Source: a virus. Taken from it: 64,000 nt of DNA. Where the stretch lies: positions 1-64,000 of IMG/VR virus record IMGVR_UViG_3300048597_000133. The stretch is one strand, 5' to 3'. A model generated the notes under the pieces. That model was not told the origin of the DNA and did no database searches. It was given only the letters and a program-made list of their open reading frames with translations. Shown here one piece after another: positions 8,886 through 64,000 of this stretch (its first letter is position 1; each line of letters opens with the position of its first letter). The position numbers and the translations under genes are program-made.

Positions 8886-11345
8886 TTATGCAAAGACGGC
8901 GTCCCAGTCAATAGCTTCAGTGTTAAATAACCCTTTAGCATAGTTAGAAACGTGAGCAGCAAAGAAATCAGTGCTGGCTTCGCCGCCGGTCATCAAATAA
9001 AACCAGCGTTCAATCTGCCGAGCTGCTTCTTTATCAACGTCAAAGATAGGCTCTAAACCTAGCTCTTCTAACTTTTGATTTGTACGCTGTTCGATGAACG
9101 ACTTAACGATGTGGGCGTTTAGCCCGGGCAACTCATGGTTATCAAAGACCATATCAATGAAGTTATATTCCAACTCCACTACAGTGCGCGCCGCATCGTA
9201 CAAGGTGTTGTTCAAGCGCTCATTGTTTAACGAGGGGAACTCTGAACGTAGTTGTCTAAATAGCCAGCACCCAGCATTACTGTGCATACAGTTGCCGGAT
9301 ATCATCACTGACTCTTTATACCTGGTGATCAAAGTCCCTTTATCCACAGTCGCGCAGTAGACATAACCTGAGTAGGTCTTAGTGTCTTTGGTGCCACACC
9401 TGGTATTCTTCCAAGCTTTGTTATCCCAAATCTTTAAACCATGACTATAACCACGAAGGGGATTAGGATAATATTCCGCTGCCCTACCAGATAAGACACA
9501 AAGAACTTGCACCATATCTGAAGCTTCTTTGTTGTTAGTGTAGAATACCTCACAAGTCCTATTAGCCGGTCTACCACGACGCCAGAATCGCAATTCCATA
9601 AGGAACTGGTCTATCCAACTTTGTGTGCAATGGGTCAACACTATCCATTTATAGCCAGCAGGCTTTAAATGACAGTCTTGTATTTTGGCTTGGAAATTGA
9701 CGCTATAAGGATTGTCCCTGACTACTGTGCAGATACCTTCTACTTCGTATAAAGCAGACACGAGCTTGTGCATCTCATCAATCTTGTGTTGTTCTCTCCT
9801 CTTAGAGAAAGTAACAGTGAGTGTATAAAGACCATCTTCATCAGGCATATCTACCCGACCACCAATGAACTCTGTGATTAAATAGAGTCGTTCAAGGGGT
9901 GTCATAGAAATCTTATTGCCTTGTAGCTTATACCCGGCAATAGGTATTTCATATTTGTTTTGTAAGTTAAGGTCGATAGCCTTAATTTTGTGGGTGCATT
10001 TTTTATTAAGATTGCGGACTACCATGTCATGGTCTTTGGTAACCCGACACTTGACAGCAGCTTTACGCTTTCCACCAAGCTCTACCATCACACCTGAGTA
10101 GCGCTTCTTAATGATTTGCTGTGGTCTTACATAGCTAATCTCTTGGGTTTCCATGTCGTATTGAGCCAAAAGACAATGCTGCGGCAGCGAATCAAACCGG
10201 ACCCAGCCTATATCAGTTAACACTTCGGTGTCTGGAGTATGACATTCATCACGCACGCTATAAGCAATCACCTCAGATACGCCTTTGAGCATGTTCTCTG
10301 ATGGTAGTTCCAAGTAGTTGCCTTTAAGACCGTACTTGTCTGTGATATCTTTGCCTCCAGCTCGGTCTAATTCTTTGATTAATCCCCGAGCAGAGAAGTA
10401 TAGTAGGACAGCAAAGTTTGCATAGAGGCTAACCCCTTCAGCAAAAGCAGAGTATACAGCTAGAGATACAGCTCTGTCTTCTAACGAGTCACTGCGGACA
10501 TTAATAAGATTTTCTATCTTGGCGGCTGCACTAGGTTCTCTTAAGAAGGCATCATGCTCTTCTAGGTTTAGTGTCTCATTCAGGTAGTTATAAGACTTGC
10601 TATGGATACTATTACCAGTGATAGTAATCTTACCGTTACGTCTGCACACTACAGTAGTATCTGGCATAGACACACAGTAGACGTATCCATTGTATTGCCG
10701 CTTAATGGGGCGCGGTAGGTGGCTAAACTCTATCAACTCATCTATTTGGATTGTAGTTAGTAGACTGCCAGTGTCAGTGCGCTCTAATAAATCCCCAGCT
10801 TTGATTTTATCTAAATCCCCGTTAGCTAAAATCACTAACATGTCATGGTTAGGTGTTACACATACATCAATGTGCTCACCTAAGAAATGGACCATGTCGC
10901 CCGTGTAACGACGCTTAATGACCTTCTCGGGCTCAGCATAACTAATAGTGCAGGTCTTCATATCCATCTGAGCTACCTTGTGTTCTTCTGTAATATCTGG
11001 GCAAGGTACCCAACCTTCAGTAGTCAATAGCTCAGTCTCAGCGTCGAAGCATTCCATACCTGCAAAGGTAAACGCCATCAGGCTAATTTCCGGCTTAGGA
11101 AACCACTGAGCCACCTTCTGTGCCCAGTAGTTACCGATATACAATTCCATCTGCGTAAAGCCGAGTAGCGTGCCGCTGATTATCTTTTTTTCCTCTTCGG
11201 TCAGCTTAGTCTCCCAATCATGCACAGAGCTTGTCATTACACACTGTGACCACAGCCAATGAGACTGTTGTTGCTTTACAAAGTACTCATGTGCCTCTGG
11301 GTATTCAAAAGGCTGATACGACTTTCTTGGTGTGATTAACGTCAT
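8886..11345 (-). CDS. nrdB: Ribonucleotide reductase small subunit with two inteins
   Basis: Beta subunit of class I RNR, which holds the diiron (or Mn/Fe) radical cofactor. The precursor is 819 residues; removing inteins at 99-245 and 368-685 leaves about 354, a normal NrdB size. Splicing rebuilds both metal motifs: E98-S-I-H248 and E367-C-M-H688. Y252, four residues after H248, matches the tyrosyl-radical position (HSKSY). E67, 31 residues before E98, fits the first ligand, which is Asp in E. coli. The gene starts the operon after a 215-base leader. Without protein splicing neither metal site exists. Confidence 0.93.
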   Translation of the reverse strand: MTLITPRKSYQPFEYPEAHEYFVKQQQSHWLWSQCVMTSSVHDWETKLTEEEKKIISGTLLGFTQMELYIGNYWAQKVAQWFPKPEISLMAFTFAGMECFDAETELLTTEGWVPCPDITEEHKVAQMDMKTCTISYAEPEKVIKRRYTGDMVHFLGEHIDVCVTPNHDMLVILANGDLDKIKAGDLLERTDTGSLLTTIQIDELIEFSHLPRPIKRQYNGYVYCVSMPDTTVVCRRNGKITITGNSIHSKSYNYLNETLNLEEHDAFLREPSAAAKIENLINVRSDSLEDRAVSLAVYSAFAEGVSLYANFAVLLYFSARGLIKELDRAGGKDITDKYGLKGNYLELPSENMLKGVSEVIAYSVRDECHTPDTEVLTDIGWVRFDSLPQHCLLAQYDMETQEISYVRPQQIIKKRYSGVMVELGGKRKAAVKCRVTKDHDMVVRNLNKKCTHKIKAIDLNLQNKYEIPIAGYKLQGNKISMTPLERLYLITEFIGGRVDMPDEDGLYTLTVTFSKRREQHKIDEMHKLVSALYEVEGICTVVRDNPYSVNFQAKIQDCHLKPAGYKWIVLTHCTQSWIDQFLMELRFWRRGRPANRTCEVFYTNNKEASDMVQVLCVLSGRAAEYYPNPLRGYSHGLKIWDNKAWKNTRCGTKDTKTYSGYVYCATVDKGTLITRYKESVMISGNCMHSNAGCWLFRQLRSEFPSLNNERLNNTLYDAARTVVELEYNFIDMVFDNHELPGLNAHIVKSFIEQRTNQKLEELGLEPIFDVDKEAARQIERWFYLMTGGEASTDFFAAHVSNYAKGLFNTEAIDWDAVFA
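9291..10244 (-). other. Large intein in NrdB second EXXH motif
   Basis: A 318-residue intein runs from C368 (CHTPDTEVLT) to N685 (VMISGN), with C686 as +1. Block B reads TKDHD (436-440). The middle holds a degenerate LAGLIDADG-like domain: LYLITEFIGGRVD stands where an active enzyme would have an acidic GDG-type motif, and FLMELRFWRRG may be the second. It therefore probably splices but no longer cuts DNA. Its N- and C-terminal parts clearly resemble the other NrdB intein (EISYVRP versus TISYAEP; YSGYVYC versus YNGYVYC). Confidence 0.9.
10611..11051 (-). other. Mini-intein in NrdB first EXXH motif
   Basis: A 147-residue intein runs from C99 (CFDAETELLT) to N245 (KITITGN), with Ser246 as +1. 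Block B is TPNHD (164-168). The penultimate residue is Gly. It sits directly after the ligand Glu98 and splits E-S-I-H. It lacks an endonuclease domain and is homologous to the larger intein in the second EXXH motif. Confidence 0.93.
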
Positions 11346-50835: not shown

Positions 50836-51276
50836 CTACAGGTTTTCTAACTGTTCTAAATCGACTAAAGGATCATCAAAGCATGGGTCTGTTTTATAAA
50901 CTTCAAGGTGTAATAGAGATATAGGTCCGTAGCAGTATGGTTCGCAATGGACCACGGCCTCTTCAAATGACCAGGTGCCGGGTCTTTTAAACCTTTGGTC
51001 TGTGTAGAACACAGACATATCTTCATACTTTGACCGGACTGCATCTCCTCTTCCGTATGCCGCCCACATAGCAGCTCCTTCACGACAAGTAGGCCCTCCG
51101 CTAATCTTTAGTAGGTCTACTAAAAGCCGCTCTCTTTTATTTAATGGCTCCTCTGGGTCATCACAACACAACTGAGCCACGGCGGCGGCAAAAGACCGGT
51201 GGTATTGTGAGTGCGCCCCCGGGCGATGACTTAACCCCCACTTGAGCGCCTTATAGTAAGTTTTGATGATGTCCAT
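50836..51276 (-). CDS. Unknown protein
   Basis: 146 residues with no family recognised; contains scattered cysteines (QLCCDDPEEP, HCEPYCYGP) and acidic C-terminus. Its start overlaps the end of the MLSK gene by 26 bases. Confidence 0.6.
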   Translation of the reverse strand: MDIIKTYYKALKWGLSHRPGAHSQYHRSFAAAVAQLCCDDPEEPLNKRERLLVDLLKISGGPTCREGAAMWAAYGRGDAVRSKYEDMSVFYTDQRFKRPGTWSFEEAVVHCEPYCYGPISLLHLEVYKTDPCFDDPLVDLEQLENL

Positions 51277-51445
51277 TAAAGTACCTTCTTAAGGCTTGAG
51301 CTATACCGCTTATCTTATAATTCTGCTGGTATATTACCTTATCCACATTAATGAGCACGCCAAGATGCAGAAGTCTATTGCGGAGGATTACCTCTATCGG
51401 CATCAATAGCATGTCGTATTTTCTAAGGTTGGTTTTGCTGAGCAT
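51251..51445 (-). CDS. M-x-x-K small protein, isolated copy
   Basis: 64 residues, MLSKTNLRKYDML. Same start type as the arrays further right. A terminator-type hairpin lies directly upstream of its start codon, so expression might depend on readthrough or anti-termination. The C-terminal helix (QALRRYFNGHHQNLL) is basic. Confidence 0.65.
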   Translation of the reverse strand: MLSKTNLRKYDMLLMPIEVILRNRLLHLGVLINVDKVIYQQNYKISGIAQALRRYFNGHHQNLL

Positions 51446-52940: not shown

Positions 52941-53135
52941 TTAGTCTGACGCGTTTAATATATTTGCCATATGCCAAGGTAAAAGCCTTCCTAATCTATT
53001 AGGACTGTTAAGTCTTAATGCAATAGTAGGGTGATAAAGAGGTGCGAACCTCGCACATATGTCATCTATCCTTTTTTCAATCCTTGATGCAACAAGCATA
53101 TCTGACTTGACTTCTATCAGTGTTCTTTTTATGAC
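52941..53135 (-). CDS. M-x-x-K small protein, PNRLG type, copy 2
   Basis: 64 residues from ATG 53135, chosen by alignment to its neighbour; an ATG at 53156 would add seven residues (MSRLAPM). Its stop comes two bases before the next start. Together the two copies document recent tandem duplication. Confidence 0.68.
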   Translation of the reverse strand, partial: VIKRTLIEVKSDMLVASRIEKRIDDICARFAPLYHPTIALRLNSPNRLGRLLPWHMANILNASD

Positions 53136-53152
53136 CATGGGTGCAAGTCTGC

Positions 53153-54644: not shown

Positions 54645-54764
54645 TTAAGTGTATGGGAGCTTTCTAACAGTTCTAATTATGCTCGAATAATAATGCGGCT
54701 CTCCTAAGTGATAAAGACCGACTTTAAGCATAACCACATTATTCACGGTACGTCCAATAGTCAT
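54645..54764 (-). pseudogene. Frameshifted or split array-family remnant, 3' part
   Basis: An open frame of 39 codons (MTIGRTVNNVVMLKV) that follows a 33-codon MLTK gene in another frame. Together they would make one gene of normal array length, so this is best read as the tail of a broken copy. It could also be a real small gene. Confidence 0.45.
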
Positions 54765-54778
54765 AGACACACTACTCC

Positions 54779-54880
54779 TCACGCTTTGTTTACTGGTCTG
54801 GTATTTGGTGAGCAGACAAGCGCAAAAGTGCTAAGTAGACTTATCTGTGTAACTAACAGACTATGGGTCTTAGTCAGCAT
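54779..54880 (-). pseudogene. Array-family gene, truncated at 33 codons
   Basis: Starts MLTKTHSLLVTQISLL; its ATG lies in the overlap with the 54870 gene stop, as elsewhere in the array. It stops early at TGA (54779). The C-terminal half continues in another frame downstream, which points to a frameshift or nonsense change. Confidence 0.5.
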
Positions 54881-55052
54881 ATATCTTAAATAATTGTTCT
54901 AAATAAGCCAGCCGTATTTTCTGGTGACCCATAGGAATAAAGTCTACTGGGACGGCAGATAAAGATATGCCAGCGCTGGCGCTAAGGATTACATACGCCC
55001 TAAGGAGCTTCTTCTTTTCAGAGGGCTGACCAGTATGAGTTTTATCTAACAT
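54870..55052 (-). CDS. Array protein MLDKTHTG
   Basis: 60 residues. Starts MLDKTHTGQPSEKKKLLRAY. Has a strongly basic helix followed by a hydrophobic segment (SASAGISLSAVPVDFIPMG). Its stop falls in the next gene's start region (11-base overlap). Confidence 0.6.
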   Translation of the reverse strand: MLDKTHTGQPSEKKKLLRAYVILSASAGISLSAVPVDFIPMGHQKIRLAYLEQLFKIYAD

Positions 55053-55236
55053 GTCTTCTAATAGAGTGGTGTAGCACTGAGTGATAAGGCGATATGTTGG
55101 GGATAGCGCCCCGCTTTACACCAAGTACGATGTAGAGGTATACGTTAAGGTTATTGATATAGCGCTGCTCTATGACCTTATAGGTGCGGCTTTTAACCAC
55201 CGCAGTTTTCTTACGGTGTGTAGTCTTAGTTATCAC
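55042..55236 (-). CDS. Array protein MITKTTHR
   Basis: 64 residues with a GTG start at 55236. Begins MITKTTHRKKTAVV; rich in aromatic and basic residues (RYINNLNVYLYIVLGVKRGA). Overlaps both neighbours by 4-11 bases. Confidence 0.62.
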   Translation of the reverse strand: MITKTTHRKKTAVVKSRTYKVIEQRYINNLNVYLYIVLGVKRGAIPNISPYHSVLHHSIRRHVR

Positions 55237-55439
55237 GGCAATGATAGTGAGTCAACGAAGTTTTTTATCATTCGGGTCATTACCTCCAGGTAGATAGGTG
55301 GGTTTTCTACTGCTATCTCGCATCGTCCGTTATCGTGGACACGAACTAAGAATCCGCATAACAGGTCTAAGTTTAAATAAGCATCGTACAGAGCATCGTG
55401 CCCATTGCGGGTAACGGGCAGGTGGGTTTTGGTTAGCAT
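55233..55439 (-). CDS. Array protein MLTKTHLP
   Basis: 68 residues. MLTKTHLPVTRN, a helix DAYLNLDLLCGFLVRV, then CEIAVENPPIYLEVM, the array's hydrophobic-strand + x-P-x-x-[FIL] pattern, and a C-terminal helix. Confidence 0.65.
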   Translation of the reverse strand: MLTKTHLPVTRNGHDALYDAYLNLDLLCGFLVRVHDNGRCEIAVENPPIYLEVMTRMIKNFVDSLSLP

Positions 55440-55449
55440 GGTTGGGTAA

Positions 55450-55656
55450 CTAATCTAATCCTATAGTCTTATAAAGCCCGCCGATGATAAACCTAAAGCG
55501 GGCTGGTGGTCGGATCGACGCATAGAACCTAACTTGCTGTTTGTATGGTTGAGTTAAGTATTTAACTGACACGCCTACTTCAGAGATTGCTGTGTCAATA
55601 TGCTTGAAGACATTATTGCGCCGAGGTCGGCATTGGCAGTGCTTCTTTGTTACCAT
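55450..55656 (-). CDS. Array protein MVTKKHCQ
   Basis: 68 residues. Begins MVTKKHCQCRPRRNN; C-terminal YASIRPPARFRFIIGGLY matches the array pattern and resembles the gene at 55740 (PQIEAPNQFRSINVILW). Confidence 0.65.
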   Translation of the reverse strand: MVTKKHCQCRPRRNNVFKHIDTAISEVGVSVKYLTQPYKQQVRFYASIRPPARFRFIIGGLYKTIGLD

Positions 55657-55660
55657 CTGC

Positions 55661-55735
55661 TTAAGACCCTATAAGTACTGCCACTAATAGATCTAAAATA
55701 AGCGGGCGGTCGTATGCAATGCTTTTTGTTATCAT
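55661..55735 (-). pseudogene. Array-family start fragment, 24 codons
   Basis: MITKSIAYDRPLILD..., stop at 55661. It has the array start, an adjacent upstream stop 5 bases away and a good position, but ends after 24 codons. Probably a deletion remnant; a functional micropeptide cannot be excluded. Confidence 0.5.
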
Positions 55736-55739
55736 TCCT

Positions 55740-55937
55740 CTAATATCCTGCGAACTGCCATAGAATTACGTTAATTGAGCGGAATTGATTGGGCGCCTCA
55801 ATCTGAGGATAGAAATACAGTCTGTATCCCGTTGGGTGATATAAGTAACCAACCTGCATGCCTATGTCGTATACGGTTTTCGTGACTGTTCTTGCGGCGG
55901 GGTTGTCACTATTTCGGCGGTACTTCTTTGCTATCAT
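55740..55937 (-). CDS. Array protein MIAKKYRR
   Basis: 65 residues. MIAKKYRRNSDNPAARTV, then YFYPQIEAPNQFRSI. The match to 55450 is visible along most of its length. Its ATG overlaps the 240-residue gene's stop by 29 bases. Confidence 0.65.
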   Translation of the reverse strand: MIAKKYRRNSDNPAARTVTKTVYDIGMQVGYLYHPTGYRLYFYPQIEAPNQFRSINVILWQFAGY

Positions 55938-56631
55938 TTGTCTTTTTATCTATATGTGCCCGAAGCTTGAATAAGATGTCATTAATTTTGAAGTAATAAT
56001 GTAAGCCTCTGCTTCGACCTCTCTTAGGAATTAAATATGACCAACCTATTTCTACCCAGTTGTCATCTACAACATCTTCCACGTTAAAGTTATGGGCTGG
56101 GTGGATGTAGTAGATTTTTCCCTGTAAGTTCACAGCGACTTTTACGTCTATTAAGTCGCCAAGGTTATTCTTAATGCCTAACAGCATTGACCGATGACGG
56201 AAATACTCCCCCAAACTTTTAGCGGCTGCAAATCTATCTTCTGGCGACTCTAGCTCGACGGCACTTAATGCCTTAAGCATATCTAAGGTGACAGGGAGTA
56301 GCCGGTCATAGACTGTGATTAGCTCCGTAGTTGGTGACTGTAAGTCAAACTTGTACATACTGTGGTTACCTACAGGTTTCTCTGTTGTATAACCAGGGTT
56401 TTCTATTAAATCCACTAGATAGATACTGAGTCTGGCTTGGTCTTCGGTGGGATTGTATTTAGGTAGTTGTTCGCGTTTGAACTTGTCTACGGCGGCGACT
56501 ATCTCTTTCTTAGTGCCTCCCTTAATATAGTCTTCGTATCGTTCTATAGTTGAGTATTTAGCTTCTGAGTCGTCTAGATTGTAGAAGCTTATGGTTATTT
56601 TGTAGAGCCGTTTGGTTTTTTGTTTGGTCAT
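55909..56631 (-). CDS. Larger protein within the array
   Basis: 240 residues. The start MTKQKTKRLYKITIS recalls M-x-K, but the rest is not visibly related to the small family. Beta-rich C-terminal part (VEIGWSYLIPKRGRSRGLHY) and a helical middle. It is the only array gene of normal size, and no known family was recognised. Confidence 0.6.
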   Translation of the reverse strand: MTKQKTKRLYKITISFYNLDDSEAKYSTIERYEDYIKGGTKKEIVAAVDKFKREQLPKYNPTEDQARLSIYLVDLIENPGYTTEKPVGNHSMYKFDLQSPTTELITVYDRLLPVTLDMLKALSAVELESPEDRFAAAKSLGEYFRHRSMLLGIKNNLGDLIDVKVAVNLQGKIYYIHPAHNFNVEDVVDDNWVEIGWSYLIPKRGRSRGLHYYFKINDILFKLRAHIDKKTNDSKEVPPK

Positions 56632-56635
56632 TTCT

Positions 56636-56827
56636 TTAGTTAGCAGATAGTTGAGTTATTAGTAGTCTGCATATATACCGCAAGACGACTAAGCCTACCG
56701 TTTGGTTCATACACTCTCTGTAGTAGGTCACTTTTATAAGTTCACCTTCAATATAGGAGCTCAATCTCTCCACTACGACGTTGCAATAGAAACCCCTTCT
56801 AAGATTGTATGTGGGTTTAGGAATCAT
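56636..56827 (-). CDS. Array protein MIPKPTYN
   Basis: 63 residues, MIPKPTYNLRRGFY. Very hydrophobic C-terminus (VGLVVLRYICRLLITQLSAN). Starts inside the stop of 56824 by four bases. Confidence 0.6.
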   Translation of the reverse strand: MIPKPTYNLRRGFYCNVVVERLSSYIEGELIKVTYYRECMNQTVGLVVLRYICRLLITQLSAN

Positions 56828-57015
56828 TTCTTTAATGGTCCATAACGCACTATATGAAGTTTAAGCGCCCAACCAGCCGGGCAGATTAGATTGGAGTATG
56901 AGCTTAAACCATATTGCCAATAGAATAGTGGCTGGTCACGTAAAGAGGTATATAGTCTATCTCTAGTGACACCGTAATATACCCATTTAAAGTCGTGAGT
57001 GTGCTTAGATACCAT
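56824..57015 (-). CDS. Array protein MVSKHTHD
   Basis: 63 residues, MVSKHTHDFKWVYYG. Central SLRDQPLFYWQYGLSSYS, then SNLICPAGWALKL, a loose match to the array pattern. Confidence 0.6.
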   Translation of the reverse strand: MVSKHTHDFKWVYYGVTRDRLYTSLRDQPLFYWQYGLSSYSNLICPAGWALKLHIVRYGPLKK

Positions 57016-57208
57016 GTAAAACCCGCCGCCTTACTATAGTGTTTACAGTGTCGTACTTTTTGGTGCCGTCTATAGCTACGAAACTATAATAAGGGTCAGC
57101 TCTAAGCGTATAGGGCCCCCTAAGCGGACAGATTTTATCTGCGAAGACTGCCGGTAATAACAGGACCTTAGTGGTCCGGCGTTTTACACTTGGTGGTTTG
57201 GCTATCAT
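57005..57208 (-). CDS. Array protein MIAKPPSV
   Basis: 67 residues, MIAKPPSVKRRTTKV. The middle PYYSFVAIDGTKKYDTV follows a hydrophobic helix; the C-terminus is arginine-rich (IVRRRVLHGI). Overlaps the upstream stop by 4 bases and the 56824 start by 11. Confidence 0.6.
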   Translation of the reverse strand: MIAKPPSVKRRTTKVLLLPAVFADKICPLRGPYTLRADPYYSFVAIDGTKKYDTVNTIVRRRVLHGI

Positions 57209-57426
57209 ATCTTATGCTGTTTTAACAGGGAAGGTACATATTCGCTAACTACGTCGCTCATAATGCGGAAGTAGCGCGGCGATTTAGCTGATACTGAGAC
57301 CTCGTACCAAGTCGCTTCACGGTTTCTAGTTATAGTCTTCACATATCCTGTGTACATAGCCAAGTTCACGAATGTGAGTAGCAGCTCTTTGCGTATTACA
57401 CGTGCTTGGCGTGGTTTAGCCAGCAT
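57205..57426 (-). CDS. Array protein MLAKPRQA
   Basis: 73 residues. MLAKPRQARVIRKELLL; TWYEVSVSAKSPRYFRIM fits the pattern [WY]-x-x-[VI]-x-[VI], then SP-x-x-F. Overlaps the next start. Confidence 0.68.
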   Translation of the reverse strand: MLAKPRQARVIRKELLLTFVNLAMYTGYVKTITRNREATWYEVSVSAKSPRYFRIMSDVVSEYVPSLLKQHKI

Positions 57427-57601
57427 ATGTGATGCCCTTAATATAGAGGCAAAGAGGAGTACGGATACTTATGTGAAACCAAGTTAGCCCGGTGTCATAG
57501 GTTATTTCTTCAATGAACCCTGTAGATTTAGATAAGAGTACATAAGCTGAACGGATATCTTTCTGCTTCCTATTGACTTTAGTGTTGTATTTAGTCAGCA
57601 T
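57416..57601 (-). CDS. Array protein MLTKYNTK
   Basis: 61 residues. MLTKYNTKVNRKQKDIR; then LTWFHISIRTPLCLYI, a clear match with 57205, 58005 and 58202. Overlaps upstream and downstream by 11 bases. Confidence 0.7.
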   Translation of the reverse strand: MLTKYNTKVNRKQKDIRSAYVLLSKSTGFIEEITYDTGLTWFHISIRTPLCLYIKGITYAG

Positions 57602-57812
57602 AAAACCTCCATCTTAAATACATACACTTGTAGGCTGTATCACTCATGACATAAAAGCAGTAAGGTATGATTAATACCAACTGGTGCCATAGCATTTCAT
57701 CACCATTAACCATTTCTGTCACTATATATTTATAGTATTCAGCTAAGACCATAGAAGTCTTACTTAGTTCTTCGGGTTTTATGTTATATCGGCCATGTGA
57801 TTTTGTTAACAT
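57591..57812 (-). CDS. Array protein MLTKSHGR
   Basis: 73 residues from ATG 57812; a TTG five codons earlier is less likely. LWHQLVLIIPYCFYVM is the pattern segment. The start overlaps the previous gene by 29 bases. Confidence 0.65.
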   Translation of the reverse strand: MLTKSHGRYNIKPEELSKTSMVLAEYYKYIVTEMVNGDEMLWHQLVLIIPYCFYVMSDTAYKCMYLRWRFYAD

Positions 57813-58011
57813 ATTCATTTTTAACAAGTTGGTCTACAATACTTCCTATAACAAAGATATGGGACGGTGTGTTTATAGGAACATCGTCCCAATGTAATCC
57901 TTTAGTCACGTACTGTATAAGACCACTCCTATTTGCCAGTAACAAATAAGGATTCTTAGGTTTTGCTGATTTACTTAGTCTCATATCTACAAAGGAGGCT
58001 TTGGTCAACAT
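57784..58011 (-). CDS. Array protein MLTKASFV
   Basis: 75 residues from ATG 58011, chosen because the start matches neighbours; a longer open frame extends to 58116 but lacks support. HWDDVPINTPSHIFVIG matches the 58005 and 58202 proteins well. Confidence 0.7.
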   Translation of the reverse strand: MLTKASFVDMRLSKSAKPKNPYLLLANRSGLIQYVTKGLHWDDVPINTPSHIFVIGSIVDQLVKNEYVNKITWPI

Positions 58012-58208
58012 GATAGCTTCTCGATATATCGTTCGAATACACCCCATAAGGCAATGATATAAGAAGGTGTACTTATAGGCACTTGATGCCATATCTCCTG
58101 CCTTCTGACATAGCATACACGTCTGCTAGCTTCTGCCAGTAGTACCCAGGGCTTAGGTCTTTTTCCATACGCCATAGTCATAGGATTAAGACTAGTCTTA
58201 GTTAGCAT
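58005..58208 (-). CDS. Array protein MLTKTSLN
   Basis: 67 residues. MLTKTSLNPMTMAYG, then VCYVRRQEIWHQVPISTP and SYIIALWGVFERY. It aligns along its whole length with the decayed copy at 58390-58578 and with 58202. Overlaps neighbours by 7 bases, using ATGCTAA-type stop/start sharing. Confidence 0.75.
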   Translation of the reverse strand: MLTKTSLNPMTMAYGKRPKPWVLLAEASRRVCYVRRQEIWHQVPISTPSYIIALWGVFERYIEKLSC

Positions 58209-58396
58209 AGGCCGTATTTATATAATTCGAATATATCGTCCAAGACAATAATGTGAAGAGGTGTTCTTAAGTTAACCCCTAGCCATTCCTCTTGTTTTCT
58301 GACATGGGTTAGAGGACTAGTGCTTGAGGCTATTAACGTATACACTTTAGACCTTTTATCTAGGTCTGAATCGATAAGGCTAGTTTTAGTCAGCAT
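58202..58396 (-). CDS. Array protein MLTKTSLI
   Basis: 64 residues. MLTKTSLIDSDLDKRS, then HVRKQEEWLGVNLRTP and LHIIVLDDIFELY. Overlap with the next copy is ATGCTGA: TGA ends the preceding frame one base inside ATG. Confidence 0.75.
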   Translation of the reverse strand: MLTKTSLIDSDLDKRSKVYTLIASSTSPLTHVRKQEEWLGVNLRTPLHIIVLDDIFELYKYGLC

Positions 58397-58578
58397 GAGA
58401 AACTTCTAGCGTATTGTTCGAATGCACTGTCCAACGCAATAATATAAGAGGGCGTATCTATAGTCACCTAGTGCCACCCTTCTTGCTTTCTAACCTGCAT
58501 TAAACGAGTAGCATTCCGCACTATCATAGAAGATTTTTTATGTTGCCGTGTATTTACAAATTTAGTCTTGGTCAATAT
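58390..58578 (-). pseudogene. Decayed array copy: lost start, in-frame stop
   Basis: The frame aligns with 58005: LTKTKFVN..., MQVRKQEGWH, then stop TAG, then VTIDTPSYIIALDSAFEQYA. The first codon is ATA where siblings have ATG, and TAG interrupts the W-H/V junction. Both changes show a recent loss of coding function. It supports the reality of the family. Confidence 0.85.
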
Positions 58579-58580
58579 AT

Positions 58581-58991
58581 TTAAACTTGGATATTTAGAA
58601 CGTCATGCAGAGTTAAAACAAACTTAGCCACCGACAATTCTTTTGACATCTGCAGTTGTATTTTCTCTTTGGCAGGTCCCCAATAAGTATAAACTGACTC
58701 TTCAGGTATAGTGGCACGCTGAAGATACTGCTCTGGTAAAAATACCATCACTGACTCGCCAAAGTTCCACCAGCGCTTGCTTTGTTTCGTAATGCGTATA
58801 TAAACGCCGCGCGTAGGGTGAATCATATAGCCTACACTCAAAGTGGCGTCCCACGTAACCGTTAACGGTTCGTTTATATCCTTTATAAGTTTAGAAATAG
58901 CTTCTACATGTTGAGAGATAAGACCTTTTAATCTTTGTCTTTCTTGATAGTCCTGGTCGTCTATTAACTTTTTGGCGTCGCTGTAATTCAT
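58581..58991 (-). CDS. Unknown protein flanking the array
   Basis: 136 residues, MNYSDAKKLIDDQDYQ, with helices then a beta-rich middle (TVTWDATLSVGYMIHPTRGV). No family seen. Probably the first gene of the 54-59 kb operon. Confidence 0.6.
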   Translation of the reverse strand: MNYSDAKKLIDDQDYQERQRLKGLISQHVEAISKLIKDINEPLTVTWDATLSVGYMIHPTRGVYIRITKQSKRWWNFGESVMVFLPEQYLQRATIPEESVYTYWGPAKEKIQLQMSKELSVAKFVLTLHDVLNIQV

Positions 58992-59230
58992 AATTTGTGT
59001 GTTGTTGCTTAGTGGACAAGGTCGTACAAGCTACGACTTGCAACTACTGATTATTAATGTAATCATTGAGGTCATAGAAAACTTCTAGTAAGTAGACTAT
59101 GTGGTGGAGCGTAGTTCTGACTGTTGGATGAGAAGCCCAAGCAGAACTAACTGTGTCCTGTGATAGACCTCCTTAAATTCACTATTTAAGGGAGGTCTAT
59201 CAAAATAGAATAATGTCTGCGGTGTCTTCC
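58992..59230. other. Gap between ligase and array, no gene found
   Basis: 239 bases. It contains a strong hairpin (59161-59202) and a GTCGTA/TACGAC short stem near 59030-59047. On the minus strand an open frame of about 40 codons runs right after the hairpin (GGT CTA TCA...) but lacks ATG, GTG or TTG, so I do not call a gene. Promoter of the 58991 gene is likely in here. Confidence 0.5.
59161..59202. other. Long hairpin with SD/anti-SD-like stem
   Basis: A 12-bp outer stem (59161-59172 with 59191-59202) and a 5-bp inner stem (59173-59177 with 59185-59189) are separated by one bulged G. One arm reads ACCTCCTTA, like the 3' end of 16S rRNA; the other reads TTAAGGGAGGT, like a Shine-Dalgarno site. 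No U-tract on either strand. It follows the ligase stop on the minus strand. Confidence 0.8.
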
Positions 59231-60421
59231 TCACTCGTAATCTCTGAACGTTACGCCGATGGGAAAACGTGGTAGCCCGTCGTTTGTATAGCCAAAGTGC
59301 TTGATGGTTAAGGGCGTCATTTGCGGCGGCTTGTTATTGTACAAAGCCTCTTTCTGGGCAACAGTGCCTTGCATCTTTGCTTTGAAGGCTCCGTCTTTAC
59401 TGCCAGCGATACAGACTGCAATCAGATCCTCTACGCCCCGCTGCCCCAACTCAAAGTCAAGAAAGGGGAACTCATTAGAGTCGTACTCTTTAACTTTCAA
59501 CAGGTTGGAGCTGCGCTGACCTTGGTCATAGCTGCCGTCTAGCAGGCGCACCATCACACCTTCATAGCCTTCTTGAACGTAATGGTCGTGGAGTTTTAAT
59601 ACTTCTTCTTTGTTAATGCAAAGATGCCCGGGGACTACGTGAGAATATAACCAAGAATTAGTAGCGAACAGCGAACTAATAGTCTCCCACCTTACTACTT
59701 GTGTGGAGTCAGAAACAACGTCATAGACCATATACCGTAAGGTTAGAGATTCATCTCGGTATTTCTTAACGCAGGCTACTATCTCTTGGAAGGTGAGTCC
59801 GTGTGCGTAAATCTCACCGTCTAAGATAATGGGTTTTGTAAGACTATCTTCTAGTTCCTTCGTTATGTGGGGTAAAGTGCTATACGTCTTGCCAGTGCGG
59901 GATAACATAGTGACTTTTTCCCCATCAAAGATACAAAGGCAACGGACTCCGTCGTATTTGGGCATTACAAGGCAACCATAGTTGACTTTCTTCCAGTTTA
60001 CTGACTTGGCCAGCATTGGTTTTACATTGCCCTGGGCGTCAGTCATATAGGTAGGTAAAGCCTCTTCTAAAGCGTTCTTAAGCGTTGAATAGAGTGTGTT
60101 GTTGTATGAGAAAGCGGAGGCTGTTGTTCCTTGTACCCACTCAATACCTAAATCTTCTATAGTCTTGTAGCCTTGGTCTTTCTTTTTCTTCCAGTCGGAC
60201 TCAGCCTGGCTCTTGGCTTGCTCTAAGGGAGTCGTTTGATTCGCGCGTCCCAAGTTTTTGCCTTCTTGAACATGTTCGATGTTCTCTAAGGGTTTGTCGG
60301 TGCCGTACTGTCCAGAGGTTTTGGTAATGATAGCTGTGCCGTCGGCTTGGGCAGTAACATCAATCTCCCAGAATTGTATCGCGGTCGTGCGGGTGCGTTT
60401 GTAGAGCAGGGGCAGCTTCAT
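59231..60421 (-). CDS. ATP-dependent DNA ligase
   Basis: 396 residues. An N-terminal WGR-like segment (about 10-90) precedes the nucleotidyltransferase core: MPKYDGVR (motif I, K155), DGEIY (motif III, E203), EGYEGVMVRL (motif IV) and LLKVKEYDSNEFP (motif V). It seals nicks during replication and repair. WGR fused to ligase is less common than the plain core. Confidence 0.88.
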   Translation of the reverse strand: MKLPLLYKRTRTTAIQFWEIDVTAQADGTAIITKTSGQYGTDKPLENIEHVQEGKNLGRANQTTPLEQAKSQAESDWKKKKDQGYKTIEDLGIEWVQGTTASAFSYNNTLYSTLKNALEEALPTYMTDAQGNVKPMLAKSVNWKKVNYGCLVMPKYDGVRCLCIFDGEKVTMLSRTGKTYSTLPHITKELEDSLTKPIILDGEIYAHGLTFQEIVACVKKYRDESLTLRYMVYDVVSDSTQVVRWETISSLFATNSWLYSHVVPGHLCINKEEVLKLHDHYVQEGYEGVMVRLLDGSYDQGQRSSNLLKVKEYDSNEFPFLDFELGQRGVEDLIAVCIAGSKDGAFKAKMQGTVAQKEALYNNKPPQMTPLTIKHFGYTNDGLPRFPIGVTFRDYE

Positions 60422-60425
60422 GAGA

Positions 60426-60611
60426 TTAATCAGAATAGAATGTTGTGCGTAGGTTAAGAGGGTCCGCGGCGGTGGGACTATCCATCGTACGCATAGGGAT
60501 TTTGGTTAGGTAATAGGTGGACATTAACGCTTTACTATTGCCGGATGCGTTGAGATCGACCCACCTCTCGTGGACTACTTGTGCGTAGTAGACTTCTTCT
60601 TTTTTATCCAT
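60426..60611 (-). CDS. Small unknown protein upstream of ligase
   Basis: 61 residues, MDKKEEVYYAQVVHERW. No family recognised. Spaced 4 bases from the ligase. Confidence 0.55.
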   Translation of the reverse strand: MDKKEEVYYAQVVHERWVDLNASGNSKALMSTYYLTKIPMRTMDSPTAADPLNLRTTFYSD

Positions 60612-60879
60612 ATTCAGTTGAGAATATTGGTAGTTTTAGGCAGCTTAAAACCTTTTGTTGATAATCCGCATCCAGTCGCTGCTTAATTACCTCTGGGTTT
60701 TCCTCAGTTACTTGCTCATTAAGACTCCACGGCGTGTTGTAGATGGCTTTCCGAGCTGTCCACCTAATCCAAATAGTACCAAAGGGCGTGCCTGCAATGT
60801 ATTCATTGCAGGCTCCATAGTCTTCACTTTCAGGCCAGTGGGTCATTTCCCAATCTAGGGGTTTAACAAGGTTGTTCAT
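60604..60879 (-). CDS. Unknown protein
   Basis: 91 residues. GTIWIRWTARKAIYNTPWSL looks like a beta-hairpin. Overlaps the next gene by 8 bases. No family recognised. Confidence 0.55.
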   Translation of the reverse strand: MNNLVKPLDWEMTHWPESEDYGACNEYIAGTPFGTIWIRWTARKAIYNTPWSLNEQVTEENPEVIKQRLDADYQQKVLSCLKLPIFSTEYG

Positions 60880-60882
60880 GGG

Positions 60883-61083
60883 TTAAAGAGTAGTGGTTAT
60901 GTTCTTAATGGTTAGGGCTAGGTGCTCTACTTCGGCTTGATCTGGTCGACAGTTGTACAACCTCAATACTCCTTTGTAGAGCCTGATATCCGGCGGCAAC
61001 ATTAGCTTGGTACCTTTTTTACCAATGCTGTGGAGCCACCTTAAAGTCTCCCCGAGGTCTACTAGGGCGGTGAGGTTCGGCAT
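60883..61083 (-). CDS. Unknown protein next to TnpB insertion
   Basis: 66 residues, helical. Starts at 61083, about 90 bases from the divergent TnpB start. The left end of the TnpB element may lie in that 90-base gap. Confidence 0.55.
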   Translation of the reverse strand: MPNLTALVDLGETLRWLHSIGKKGTKLMLPPDIRLYKGVLRLYNCRPDQAEVEHLALTIKNITTTL

Positions 61084-61176
61084 ATAGTAGACGTCGATTA
61101 GGTCGTTGTCGGGGAAGGTTAAGGGGGTTTGAAACTGTTGGCATAAATCTGTAGAAAATAGTAGAATCTAGTAGTA

Positions 61177-62406
61177 ATGGTTGCACAGCGTAATTCCATG
61201 AGACAAGTTGAACGAACATACATTAAGCTATCGAGTGCCTATTTCTCCACAGTGGATGATTTATCGTGGAGGGCAAAGAATTTATACAACTTAGCCAACT
61301 ACCACATCAGACAAGAGTTCTTCAAGTCTGGTGGATATATTGGATTCTTTGACCTTTATCACCTCCTAAAGGGGACAGAGGCATACTTGGACTTGCCTAC
61401 AAAGGTGTCCAAACAGATAGTTAAACGTGTTGCTCAGACCTGGAAAGGTTATTTAGCCGCACACAAAGACTGGAAGCGTAATCCACATAAGTACCTAGGA
61501 GAGCCAAAGATTCCTGGTTACTTGGATAAGGAAAAAGGACGTTATTTAATCCCGTATCCTATAGACGCAATCAGTCGTCCTGCGCTTAGAGAAGGATTCA
61601 TTAAACCGTCCATGACGAAGATGCGTATCCCAACTCAAGTCAAAGACGTTAAGGTCTGCGAGGTGCGCTTTGTGCCTAAAACAGATTGCTACGTTATGGA
61701 AGTTGTGTACGAGGTAGAAGGCAAGGAACTTACCGAGGATAATGGTGTAGTTGCTGGATTAGACCTAGGGCTTAACAACCTTTGTACAGTCGCTACCAAT
61801 CGACTCGATGTTGCCCCTCTTATTGTTAACGGAAGGGGACTAAAGTCTATAAACCAGTTCTACAACAAGACTAAAGCTGACATCCAGTCTAAGTTAAGCG
61901 GGAAGCGTAAATCCTCTGCAAGGTTGCGCCTATTAACTCAGAAGCGGAATCAGCGTGTAGATTCTGCTCTGCATCAAGCTAGTAGAAAGGTAATTGACTA
62001 CTGTGTCGAAAACCTAGTAACGACGCTTGTAGTGGGCTACAACAGCTTGTGGAAACAAGAGATTAACATCGGTAAGCGTAACAACCAGCAGTTTACTCAA
62101 ATCCCCCACCGTAAACTGATAGACCAAATCACATATAAGGCGGCGCTTGTAGGTATCAAGGTAATAGAGACAGAGGAAAGCTACACCAGCAAATGCTCTG
62201 CTTATGACCTAGAACCTGTCAAGAAGCATAAGTCCTATGTAGGTCGTAGGGTTAAGCGTGGACTGTTTAAGACTGCCACTGGATTGTTGGTTAATGCCGA
62301 CGTTAATGGAGCATTAAATTGCATCTTAAAAGTATTCAGCAACGAGGTTATCTTCGAGTTGATAGGGGCTCAGCCGTTGCGCCCTAGAGTGGTTAATCCA
62401 ATCTAA
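61177..62406 (+). CDS. tnpB: TnpB RNA-guided nuclease (IS200/IS605-type accessory)
   Basis: 409 residues. RuvC-I is AGLDLGLNN (D196), RuvC-III NADVNGALN (D375). The usual RuvC-II glutamate place reads VVGYNSLWKQE; candidates are E295 or the ETEESYTSK acids (331-334), so the active site may be rearranged. The zinc ribbon is reduced to one cysteine (TSKCSAYD), with KSYVGRRVKRGLF between. No tnpA is nearby, so it is probably a TnpB-only (IS1341-like) element. Confidence 0.88.
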   Translation: MVAQRNSMRQVERTYIKLSSAYFSTVDDLSWRAKNLYNLANYHIRQEFFKSGGYIGFFDLYHLLKGTEAYLDLPTKVSKQIVKRVAQTWKGYLAAHKDWKRNPHKYLGEPKIPGYLDKEKGRYLIPYPIDAISRPALREGFIKPSMTKMRIPTQVKDVKVCEVRFVPKTDCYVMEVVYEVEGKELTEDNGVVAGLDLGLNNLCTVATNRLDVAPLIVNGRGLKSINQFYNKTKADIQSKLSGKRKSSARLRLLTQKRNQRVDSALHQASRKVIDYCVENLVTTLVVGYNSLWKQEINIGKRNNQQFTQIPHRKLIDQITYKAALVGIKVIETEESYTSKCSAYDLEPVKKHKSYVGRRVKRGLFKTATGLLVNADVNGALNCILKVFSNEVIFELIGAQPLRPRVVNPI

Positions 62407-62530
62407 AAACATTACCTCGTATTTCTACAGGTTTTGTGAACGGTTAGGGGACATAAGACTAGCTCAGCTAGCTGTTCCTGTTTGAGCCCCGAATCCCATC
62501 GGCTTTAGCCGTGGGAGTGGGTCAATCTCC
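62407..62530 (+). ncRNA. TnpB right end, probable omega-RNA
   Basis: Contains CTAGC/GCTAG near 62458-62473 and a stem-loop, CCCA-CGGC / GCCG-TGGG (62495-62515) with loop TTTA, ending near GTCAA (62521-62525). In IS200/IS605 elements the omega-RNA overlaps the tnpB 3' end and runs through the right end, with the guide from flanking sequence just beyond. The 62526+ bases would be that guide. Confidence 0.65.
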
Positions 62531-62562
62531 AAGGAATTAGAGTAGGAGTAGTTAGGTGTTGT

Positions 62563-62832
62563 TTAGCTAGCATAATTTTTAAGTGCGGCGCGGGCAACTG
62601 TTTCAGCAAAACCTTTAGAGTTACCAACATGGCTAGTGTAGAGCCAATAGCCTTTAAGTAAGAGTCCCTCCTCATGTGAAAACTTCTTAACTTCGCTACA
62701 CATACGCTGAGACAAAGTGTGATGCTTATTATCGTTACACCAGTTAGATAGCAGTGAGTAGAATTCCCTCAGCTTTAATTCTTTCAGTTGAGCGCCGGCT
62801 AACTTACGGCACTTGGCTTTGTCAAAAATCAT
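62563..62832 (-). CDS. Array-like protein MIFDKAKC
   Basis: 89 residues, MIFDKAKCRKLAGAQL. Its ATG overlaps the stop of the 62829 gene (ATGA-type). Longer than most array proteins and its start has an extra residue; membership is tentative. Mostly helical. Confidence 0.6.
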   Translation of the reverse strand: MIFDKAKCRKLAGAQLKELKLREFYSLLSNWCNDNKHHTLSQRMCSEVKKFSHEEGLLLKGYWLYTSHVGNSKGFAETVARAALKNYAS

Positions 62833-63026
62833 CTTTTGTTTCTAATCCTGTTGGCTACAATATGTACAGCAAAGCAATAGTTAAAGTGCCTTGTGTCCGG
62901 GTCATACTTAGGATACACGTCATACTCTGACCTAATATCATTGCGTAGTTTAAAAGCCAAGTCGAAGGTAGTCATTCTACTAAAGGGCGACCTTTTCCTG
63001 CTGATGGTTTTCTTTTTAGTTAGCAT
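62829..63026 (-). CDS. Array protein MLTKKKTI
   Basis: 65 residues, MLTKKKTISRKRSPFSR, very basic. The C-terminal part has FNYCFAVHIVANRIRN. Coupled to both neighbours by overlaps. Confidence 0.65.
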   Translation of the reverse strand: MLTKKKTISRKRSPFSRMTTFDLAFKLRNDIRSEYDVYPKYDPDTRHFNYCFAVHIVANRIRNKR

Positions 63027-63184
63027 CGGCCCAGATACTGTATTAAGGTGTAGTGCATCTTATTGAGAGCTGGTAGATTAGACCTATATAGCGACTCTCG
63101 GAACACATTACGCCTGGAGATGTGGGACTTTAAGTTAAACTTCAGACCGGCTGGAGCCAAACCACTATTAGGCTTCTTTAGCAT
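63020..63184 (-). CDS. Array protein MLKKPNSG
   Basis: 54 residues from ATG 63184 to TAA at 63020-63022. MLKKPNSGLAPAGLKF..., arginine-rich middle. Overlaps the upstream stop by 17 bases and the next start by 7, keeping the array continuous. Confidence 0.62.
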   Translation of the reverse strand: MLKKPNSGLAPAGLKFNLKSHISRRNVFRESLYRSNLPALNKMHYTLIQYLGRC

Positions 63185-63374
63185 AAACTGTCATATCGTT
63201 ATGATTTATATAGTTCAGGTATTCGCCTACTTCTACGTTTATATAGGTGATGTTAAACCTGCTGTCCCTTTTCATGACAGCAGCAAGTATCACGGTATAT
63301 AACTCAAGGTGCAGTTTCTGTGATACATAGCCGGGTCTACAGAGCTCATCGGATAAATTAAGTTTAGATATCAT
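63168..63374 (-). CDS. Array protein MISKLNLS
   Basis: 68 residues from ATG 63374, chosen over an in-frame ATG eleven codons upstream since it matches the array start and overlaps the previous stop by 11 bases. MISKLNLSDELCRPGYV, then FNITYINVEVGEYL. Confidence 0.65.
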   Translation of the reverse strand: MISKLNLSDELCRPGYVSQKLHLELYTVILAAVMKRDSRFNITYINVEVGEYLNYINHNDMTVYAKEA

Positions 63375-63543
63375 ACGTGTAGTATAAGCAGACCCCGACT
63401 CGGGCAACCATCAACGTATAAACTGCTCTCATCTTTAATATGTACGGGTCAGGGAGGCATTCTTGTAGGTCTGACAGTGTATTACATACGTCGGAGCAGC
63501 AGGTAGTAGCGCCGGCCTTCACTGTGTTAGTCTTTATTAACAT
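63364..63543 (-). CDS. Array protein MLIKTNTV
   Basis: 59 residues, start 63543, stop TAA at 63364-63366 within the next gene's ATGATATCTAAA. MLIKTNTVKAGATTCC has four cysteines in 30 residues, unlike the siblings. Confidence 0.62.
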   Translation of the reverse strand: MLIKTNTVKAGATTCCSDVCNTLSDLQECLPDPYILKMRAVYTLMVARVGVCLYYTYDI

Positions 63544-63709
63544 ACTTTGGTAGTGTAAAGCGTTGTAGGTCCACCGCTAGTGATATTCGCCAGTTTACTT
63601 TAAATGAGTGCCGATACATAACTCTATATTTAAGGGTGTTTAATGTCTGCTCAAGCACACCATAGCTACAAACTGCTCTTTTATCTTTTAGGTGCGCTTT
63701 GTTAATCAT
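63527..63709 (-). CDS. Array protein MINKAHLK
   Basis: 60 residues, MINKAHLKDKRAVCSYG; KVNWRISLAVDLQRFTL is a loose match to the pattern. Overlaps the previous gene by 8 bases and the next by 17. Confidence 0.63.
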   Translation of the reverse strand: MINKAHLKDKRAVCSYGVLEQTLNTLKYRVMYRHSFKVNWRISLAVDLQRFTLPKYVNKD

Positions 63710-63884
63710 TAAATCCCCTTAAATACTCATGTAATGTAAGACCTAATAATCTATGAGCTACTATTGGAGTTTTAAATAGGAACCTTTCGCACCACAATGG
63801 ACTAGCTATTCCTTCTAATACTCGGTGTAGTTTGCCATAACAAAGAAAGTTCTTTTTGCTTCTTGACTGTCTCTTTCCTAGCAT
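63702..63884 (-). CDS. Array protein MLGKRQSR
   Basis: 60 residues, MLGKRQSRSKKNFLC. Resembles 63527 (CYGKLHRVLEG versus SYGVLEQTL). Its ATG overlaps the TAG of an open frame running to the window edge. Confidence 0.63.
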   Translation of the reverse strand: MLGKRQSRSKKNFLCYGKLHRVLEGIASPLWCERFLFKTPIVAHRLLGLTLHEYLRGFND

Positions 63885-64000
63885 ACTAATAGGTAGTTAC
63901 AATGACGCCAGCGCAGGCCCAAGACAATACTGTCAGCAGAGCAACTTGCAATTTGATAGGTAGACGGTAATGATTGACCCAGTATAAGGCAATAACGCCG
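63878..64000 (-). CDS. Partial array gene at window edge
   Basis: An open frame of at least 40 codons runs from the window's right edge to TAG at 63878-63880, overlapping the next ATG by 7 bases in the array style. A second open frame (ending 63886) is hydrophobic and equally possible. The start lies outside the window. Confidence 0.4.
   Translation of the reverse strand, partial: RRYCLILGQSLPSTYQIASCSADSIVLGLRWRHCNYLLVC

What the first reader, a model, noticed from the sequence alone, without database searches (positions are those of the whole stretch)
54645..64000. Tandem array of diverged small genes sharing only an M-[LIV]-x-K start
About 23 genes or gene remnants in 54645-58578 and 62563-64000 encode proteins of about 54-90 residues. 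Most begin M-[LIV]-[TSA]-K. Many then have a basic helix, a strand with [WY]-x-x-[VI]-x-[IL], a [TSAP]-P-x-x-[FIL] segment and a short C-terminal helix (for example at 57205, 57416, 57784, 58005, 58202, 55450, 55740). This looks like a rapidly diverging gene family made by tandem duplication. Phage arrays of this type often encode host-takeover or anti-defence factors; function here is unknown.
Basis: partly seen in the sequence, partly recalled or inferred. Interest (0 to 1): 0.92.

Follow-up and report, generated by a model that had tools for sequence, protein, structure and literature searches.

The report
Hypervariable tiny-gene array with shared tag
Two related large phages, probably of filamentous cyanobacteria, each carry about 50-60 tiny, fast-changing genes whose proteins have almost nothing in common except the same four-residue beginning (Met-Leu/Ile/Val-x-Lys), which suggests one reused start tag fitted to many different small phage proteins; the function itself is untested.

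Summary
The window is part of a 97.5-kb phage record whose minus strand carries 48 small genes with the start M-[LIV]-x-K, mainly at 52.9-69.5 kb and broken up by core genes and two TnpB elements. A relative (G001, 205 kb; DNA ligase 63%, other core proteins up to 92% identical) carries 62 more. In the array regions 94 of 136 short minus-strand ORFs bear the motif, against 3 of 113 control ORFs. Codon variation and the absence of any upstream motif show that the header is conserved as protein. Removing the first 8 residues abolishes profile similarity between sub-families, except for one pair. Only 1 of 48 array genes has a reciprocal-best ortholog in G001; core genes have a median 66% identity. 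Tandem neighbours are homologous end to end and all 16 pairs tested have pN<pS, so these are selected genes under birth-and-death. Headers often hold the upstream gene's stop codon (11-nt overlap in 28 of 110; core 2 of 183). The proteins are basic (pI 9.8) and match no known family. Best reading: a hypervariable effector array with a common N-terminal tag, resembling T4 internal proteins but not shown to be one. Function is inferred.

The parts
52941..53138 (-). headed gene MVIK, 65 aa, just upstream of the finding
   Evidence: body similar to 55937 gene, E 3e-4
54779..54880 (-). remnant MLTKTH, 33 aa
54870..55052 (-). headed gene MLDK, 60 aa
55042..55236 (-). headed gene MITK (GTG start), 64 aa
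55233..55439 (-). headed gene MLTK, 68 aa, GYL/WTP body (weak)
   Evidence: E 1e-4
55450..55656 (-). headed gene MVTK, 68 aa, GYL/WTP body
55661..55735 (-). remnant MITK, 24 aa
55740..55937 (-). headed gene MIAK, 65 aa, GYL/WTP body
55909..56631 (-). 240-aa gene inside the array, start MTKQK; no family match
56636..56827 (-). headed gene MIPK, 63 aa
56824..57015 (-). headed gene MVSK, 63 aa
57005..57208 (-). headed gene MIAK, 67 aa
57205..57426 (-). headed gene MLAK, 73 aa, GYL/WTP body
57416..57601 (-). headed gene MLTK, 61 aa, GYL/WTP body
57591..57812 (-). headed gene MLTK, 73 aa, GYL/WTP body
57784..58011 (-). headed gene MLTK, 75 aa, GYL/WTP body
58005..58208 (-). headed gene MLTK, 67 aa, GYL/WTP body
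58202..58396 (-). headed gene MLTK, 64 aa, GYL/WTP body
58408..58575 (-). decayed copy: start lost, one in-frame TAG; still ends in the next gene's header
   Evidence: E 3.6e-9; sequence
59231..60421 (-). ATP-dependent DNA ligase, core gene; G001 ortholog 63% identical and carries an in-frame insert
61177..62406 (+). TnpB-type (OrfB_IS605) gene in the array, opposite strand
62505..62573 (-). headed gene MLAK, only 22 aa, ending next to the TnpB element
62563..62832 (-). 89-aa array gene without canonical header (MIFDK)
62829..63026 (-). headed gene MLTK, 65 aa
63020..63184 (-). headed gene MLKK, 54 aa; the only array gene with a reciprocal best hit in G001 (156057-156260, 46%)
63168..63374 (-). 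headed gene MISK, 68 aa
63364..63543 (-). headed gene MLIK, 59 aa
63527..63709 (-). headed gene MINK, 60 aa
63702..63884 (-). headed gene MLGK, 60 aa; array continues beyond the window to 69549 of the record
51251..51445 (-). outlying headed gene MLSKTNLRKYDM, 64 aa
32979..33212 (-). outlying headed gene MISKAAIHKLDT, 77 aa

Best explanation
It is a lineage-specific, hypervariable multigene array of tiny basic phage proteins built as tag plus variable body. Shown: the N-terminal tag M-[LIV]-[TSAN]-K is conserved at the protein level, the bodies turn over by tandem duplication, fast divergence and decay, and the genes are packed so that in about half of the cases the start of one gene holds the stop of the gene before it. 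Inferred: the tag is read by one common phage or host partner (a docking or delivery signal), while the bodies are small effectors that meet changing host targets such as defence or takeover targets; this arms race is why only the tag stays constant. The stop-start overlap is a by-product of the tag's codons that keeps a newly inserted copy closed and translationally coupled.
For: Enrichment 94/136 against 3/113. Wobble positions vary while codon positions 1-2 are fixed, and no upstream nucleotide motif exists. Headers that do not overlap an upstream gene carry embedded stops only as often as synonymous codon choice predicts (frame 1: 0.75 vs 0.67+-0.06; none: 0.21 vs 0.20+-0.05), so stop capture does not explain the motif. 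Profile similarity between sub-families: 49/66 pairs above the 95th percentile of controls with the header, 4/66 without. Tandem neighbours align end to end. pN<pS in 16/16 pairs (0.43 vs 0.69 pooled). Core median 66% identity, array 1/48 orthologs. pI 9.8 against 6.3 for core. A second array in the relative G001.
Against: No function, partner, expression or host is shown. Absence of family and fold matches is not evidence of effector function. The header is only four residues, short for a targeting signal. The 110 genes in the position counts were selected by the motif, so the K4 invariance is partly by construction (array genes without it exist: MNKQ, MIKH, MTKQ, MIFDK, MPITK). pN/pS pairs were chosen because they still align as proteins, which biases pN down. 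Both phages come from one lineage, so the two arrays are not independent origins.
Confidence: 0.45

Rival explanations
1. Virion cargo like the T4 internal proteins: the header is a capsid-targeting tag, and the small basic proteins are packed in the head, injected with the DNA and protect it in the new host.
For: Same overall design: small, basic, poorly conserved proteins that share an N-terminal targeting sequence; in T4 the first 10 residues of IPIII suffice, residues 4 and 7 matter most for targeting, and IPI inhibits a type IV restriction enzyme (PMC9026906). Array proteins are small and basic, with K4 and a frequently L/T/A/V residue 7.
Against: No conserved cleavage site: [LIV]xE in residues 5-28 in 32/110 (20.7+-3.7 expected; a slight excess, not a shared site). 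No T4-type prohead protease or capsid detected, but those searches had no positive control; HK97-type families were also not found. About 50-60 different cargo proteins would be far more than T4 has.
Confidence: 0.22
2. The header is a translation device, not a protein tag: it gives good SD-less initiation and stop codons in both other frames, so that genes can be stacked with termination-reinitiation.
For: 28/110 array starts overlap the upstream gene by exactly 11 nt and 10 by 7 nt, against 2 and 3 of 183 core starts; 58/110 overlap the upstream stop by 1-12 nt. Core genes have SD-like motifs no more often than random (11/75, 15%). Coupling by short overlaps is established, with -4 and -1 the usual lengths (PMC10666635, PMC6728339).
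Against: 52 of 110 headed genes have no such overlap and keep the same residues, with embedded stops at the neutral expectation; codons that give no stop (CTC, CTT, ATC, GTC, ACC) are common; AAA and AAG both serve for Lys; core genes of the same phage lack the motif.
Confidence: 0.18
3. One very old family in which the whole protein is homologous and the header is simply its slowest-changing part (for example a helix N-cap or a surface needed for folding), with no separate tag function.
For: Tandem pairs align from residue 1 to the end; two sub-families (GYL and WTP) are linked by body alone and one ortholog pair survives across phages; lengths and basic N-terminal segments are similar.
Against: 10 of 12 sub-families cannot be linked to any other by body profile above all controls. 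In the two models the header region lies outside the predicted secondary structure, although confidence is low there.
Confidence: 0.15

Closest known systems
T4 internal proteins IPI/IPII/IPIII with capsid-targeting sequence (PMC9026906)
   Same: Small basic phage proteins, poorly conserved between related phages, sharing a short N-terminal sequence; plausible arms-race role (IPI is an anti-restriction protein).
   Different: T4 has three, with a propeptide cleaved by gp21; here about 50-60 per phage, a four-residue conserved header, no conserved cleavage motif, no evidence of being in the virion.
Tightly packed clusters of small early or host-takeover genes in large phages (for example the SPO1 takeover module; from general knowledge, not tested)
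   Same: Runs of tiny co-directional genes of unknown function in a large phage genome.
   Different: Such clusters are not known to me to share one start motif across unrelated bodies, nor the recurrent 11-nt stop-start overlap.
Translationally coupled overlapping gene pairs in prokaryotes (PMC10666635, PMC6728339)
   Same: Stop of the upstream gene overlaps the start of the next.
   Different: Usual overlaps are 4 and 1 nt; here the mode is 11 nt, with the stop written into codons 3-4 of the next gene.

Membership tests
T4-type internal proteins with CTS | short conserved N-terminal sequence on otherwise divergent small basic proteins | tested here: met
T4-type internal proteins with CTS | prohead-protease cleavage site after the tag | tested here: not met
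   [LIV]xE in 32/110 only, no conserved position
T4-type internal proteins with CTS | phage encodes a gp21-type prohead protease and a gp23-type capsid | tested here: inconclusive
   no match to PF03420 or PF07068, but no positive control rang and the records may be incomplete
T4-type internal proteins with CTS | present in the virion and injected | not testable with these tools
   needs virion proteomics
Tandem multigene family under birth-and-death | adjacent copies homologous end to end, with decaying copies | tested here: met
Tandem multigene family under birth-and-death | all members homologous over the body | tested here: not met
   only one sub-family pair is joined above all controls without the header; homology may be lost to divergence
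Known phage, defence or structural families | significant match to PHROGs, Pfam, PADLOC, PDB sequence or fold | tested here: not met
   106 proteins scanned; best hits E 0.002-0.01, each in one member only; PDB best E 0.65; Foldseek best E 0.69

The most novel reading that the evidence does not exclude
A four-residue N-terminal tag defines a class of dozens of unrelated small phage proteins that are all routed through one common partner, while the same twelve bases close the preceding reading frame, so that the phage can add new effector genes in any frame: a plug-in system for effector evolution.
Probability: 0.27. Interest if true: 0.85.

Novelty: new variant of a known kind. Interest (0 to 1): 0.62.

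Why it matters
If the tag is a docking or delivery signal, it would give a sequence handle for finding dozens of otherwise unrecognisable small phage effectors at once, and one pull-down with the tag could reveal the shared partner. It would also be a strong natural case of the design seen in T4 internal proteins (constant tag, variable body) taken to 50-60 genes in phages of little-studied, probably cyanobacterial, hosts. If instead the header is translational, the 11-nt stop-start junction is an unusual route to stacking genes.

Tried and rejected
DNA-level repeat or promoter at the header: rejected, no upstream information and free wobble positions. Selection for embedded stop codons as the cause of the motif: rejected for non-overlapping genes. 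One shared fold for all bodies: not supported (models at pLDDT 65 and 73; no fold match). The weak winged-helix-like PDB matches (E about 3-9) are not significant and not used. Searches that found no further relatives: ligase, RecA and 240-aa gene as single queries (the G002 hit has no array), DUF6745 and kinase-ligase alignments (only G001), two double-header scans of IMG/VR (113 stretches, only G001 has an array), 390 genomes of the class of the Hormoscilla genome (positive control of the profile), INPHARED. Literature searches found no description of such an array; only openly licensed papers are held.
Full report
WHAT WAS CHECKED. The window is bases 1-64000 of a 97,522-base virus record; I fetched the rest and analysed all of it. 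The finding describes small minus-strand genes at 54645-58578 and 62563-64000. They are there, and the array continues to 69,549, with a satellite cluster at 75.2-76.1 kb. In all, 48 genes or remnants that begin M-[LIV]-x-K were taken as the family in this record.

IS IT MORE THAN CHANCE? Counting every ATG-started ORF of 45-110 codons regardless of its start motif, 36 of 47 on the array strand carry M[LIV]xK at an in-frame ATG, against 0 of 9 on the other strand of the same region and 3 of 61 in the core region; two of the three look like stray family members. In the relative G001 the numbers are 58 of 89 against 0 of 43. Internal methionines of core proteins are followed by [LIV]xK in 2 of 325 cases.

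A SECOND PHAGE. A scan of IMG/VR for two headers at gene spacing returned 56 stretches, of which one, IMGVR_UViG_3300048597_000634 (205,544 bp, G001), has a true array. It holds 31 reverse-strand ATGYTNACNAAR sites against 2 forward and 0-2 in the reversed-pattern control, and 62 headed genes, nearly all at 151-193 kb. Its core genes are orthologs of this phage's: DNA ligase 63%, DUF6745 protein 87%, kinase-ligase 77%, PhoH 92%, RIIA 57%; 42 reciprocal best pairs with median 66%. Only 1 of the 48 array genes has a reciprocal best hit among array genes (63184 with 156260, 46% over 37 residues), although some arrays sit next to the same core genes. One of the 62 G001 genes (196382-196642) is instead the ortholog of a core gene without a header, so it is probably a chance match to the motif. 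No further relative was found with the tools available, nor any match in 390 genomes of one class.

THE HEADER IS A PROTEIN FEATURE. Among 110 genes selected by the motif, position 2 is L80/I23/V7 and position 3 T64/S18/A8/N8; Leu is written with all six codons, Thr with all four, and Lys as AAA or AAG. Nucleotide information is concentrated at codon positions 1-2 of the header; the 25 bases upstream carry almost none. Core genes of this phage have Shine-Dalgarno-like motifs no more often than random sequence (11/75, about 15%). The Lys at position 4 was part of the selection, so its invariance is not itself a measurement; variants with a shifted Lys exist in the arrays (MIFDK, MTKQ, MNKQ, MIKH, MPITK).

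THE HEADER ALSO CLOSES THE GENE BEFORE IT. In 58 of 110 cases the upstream gene overlaps the start by 1-12 nt, so that its stop lies in or touches the header. The commonest overlap is 11 nt (28/110, against 2/183 for core genes), then 4 and 7 nt. In the 11-nt class the header, read in another frame, writes the neighbour's last residues, often -AD or -VN. Is this the cause of the motif? No: in the 52 genes without such overlap the header persists, and embedded stops occur at the rate expected from synonymous codon use. Capture of the stop is best read as a consequence, perhaps a useful one.

WHAT THE BODIES ARE. Tandem neighbours are homologous from end to end (58011/58208, 5e-13; 66266/66420, 1e-10), and 16 of 16 pairs show pN below pS (pairs chosen by protein similarity, so the ratio is biased low). 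A decayed copy at 58408-58575 has lost its start and has a TAG. Of 110 proteins, 76 join no cluster at E<1e-3. Comparing 12 sub-family profiles, 49 of 66 pairs beat the 95th percentile of column-shuffled controls with the header, but only 4 of 66 (3.3 expected) once the first eight residues are removed; one pair, GYL-WTP, beats every control. No fold match was significant, and no family library recognises any of the 106 proteins scanned beyond single marginal hits. The proteins are small (median 65 aa) and basic (median pI 9.8, 80% above 8; core 6.3), with the basic residues densest at positions 5-12.

HOST. The TnpB gene at 61177-62406 is closest, among searched genomes, to one in Hormoscilla (77% in the best segment) and other filamentous cyanobacteria. 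Mobile elements travel, so this is a lead, not a proof.

INTERPRETATION. The shown facts are a constant protein-level tag, variable bodies, tandem birth and death, and selection on the bodies. The best-supported reading is a hypervariable effector array whose tag is recognised by one partner. T4 internal proteins are the nearest known design: small basic proteins that share a short N-terminal capsid-targeting sequence, with an anti-restriction role for IPI (PMC9026906). Membership is not claimed: the cleavage-site test failed, virion presence is untested, and searches for a T4-type head were inconclusive. A purely translational role and a single ancient family remain possible.

Noticed in passing
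window 61177-62406; record 67027-68334; G001 190137-192206: Two different TnpB (OrfB_IS605) genes sit in the array. The first is nearly identical to a broken copy in G001 (94% over 124 aa) that lies among array genes at another place and is itself interrupted by a second TnpB, so the arrays seem to be tolerant landing sites.
   Followed up: partly
G001 151496-153766: The G001 DNA ligase is an open 756-aa frame with about 1.07 kb of extra in-frame sequence that the window's ligase lacks, probably an intein.
   Followed up: no
window 8886-11345 and L004 3676-5424: NrdB is 819 aa with an internal insert, and the PolA-like protein has intein-like sequence near its end; inteins appear common in this lineage.
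   Followed up: no
window 3922-5064: Tyrosine-type integrase gene (phrog_1, E 7e-28) in a phage that also carries RIIA, NrdA/B, PolA, RecA and ThyX.
   Followed up: no
record 66713-67000 (L002 13714-14001): SH3_3-domain protein inside the array, conserved at 76% in G001; no match in INPHARED.
   Followed up: partly
record 69602-70672 (L002 16603-17673): DUF6745 protein flanking the array, 87% identical in G001; distant relatives only on a Nostoc and two Streptomyces plasmids.
   Followed up: partly
window 55909-56631: 240-aa protein of unknown function inside the array, starting MTKQKTKRL, a header-like start without the hydrophobic second residue.
   Followed up: no
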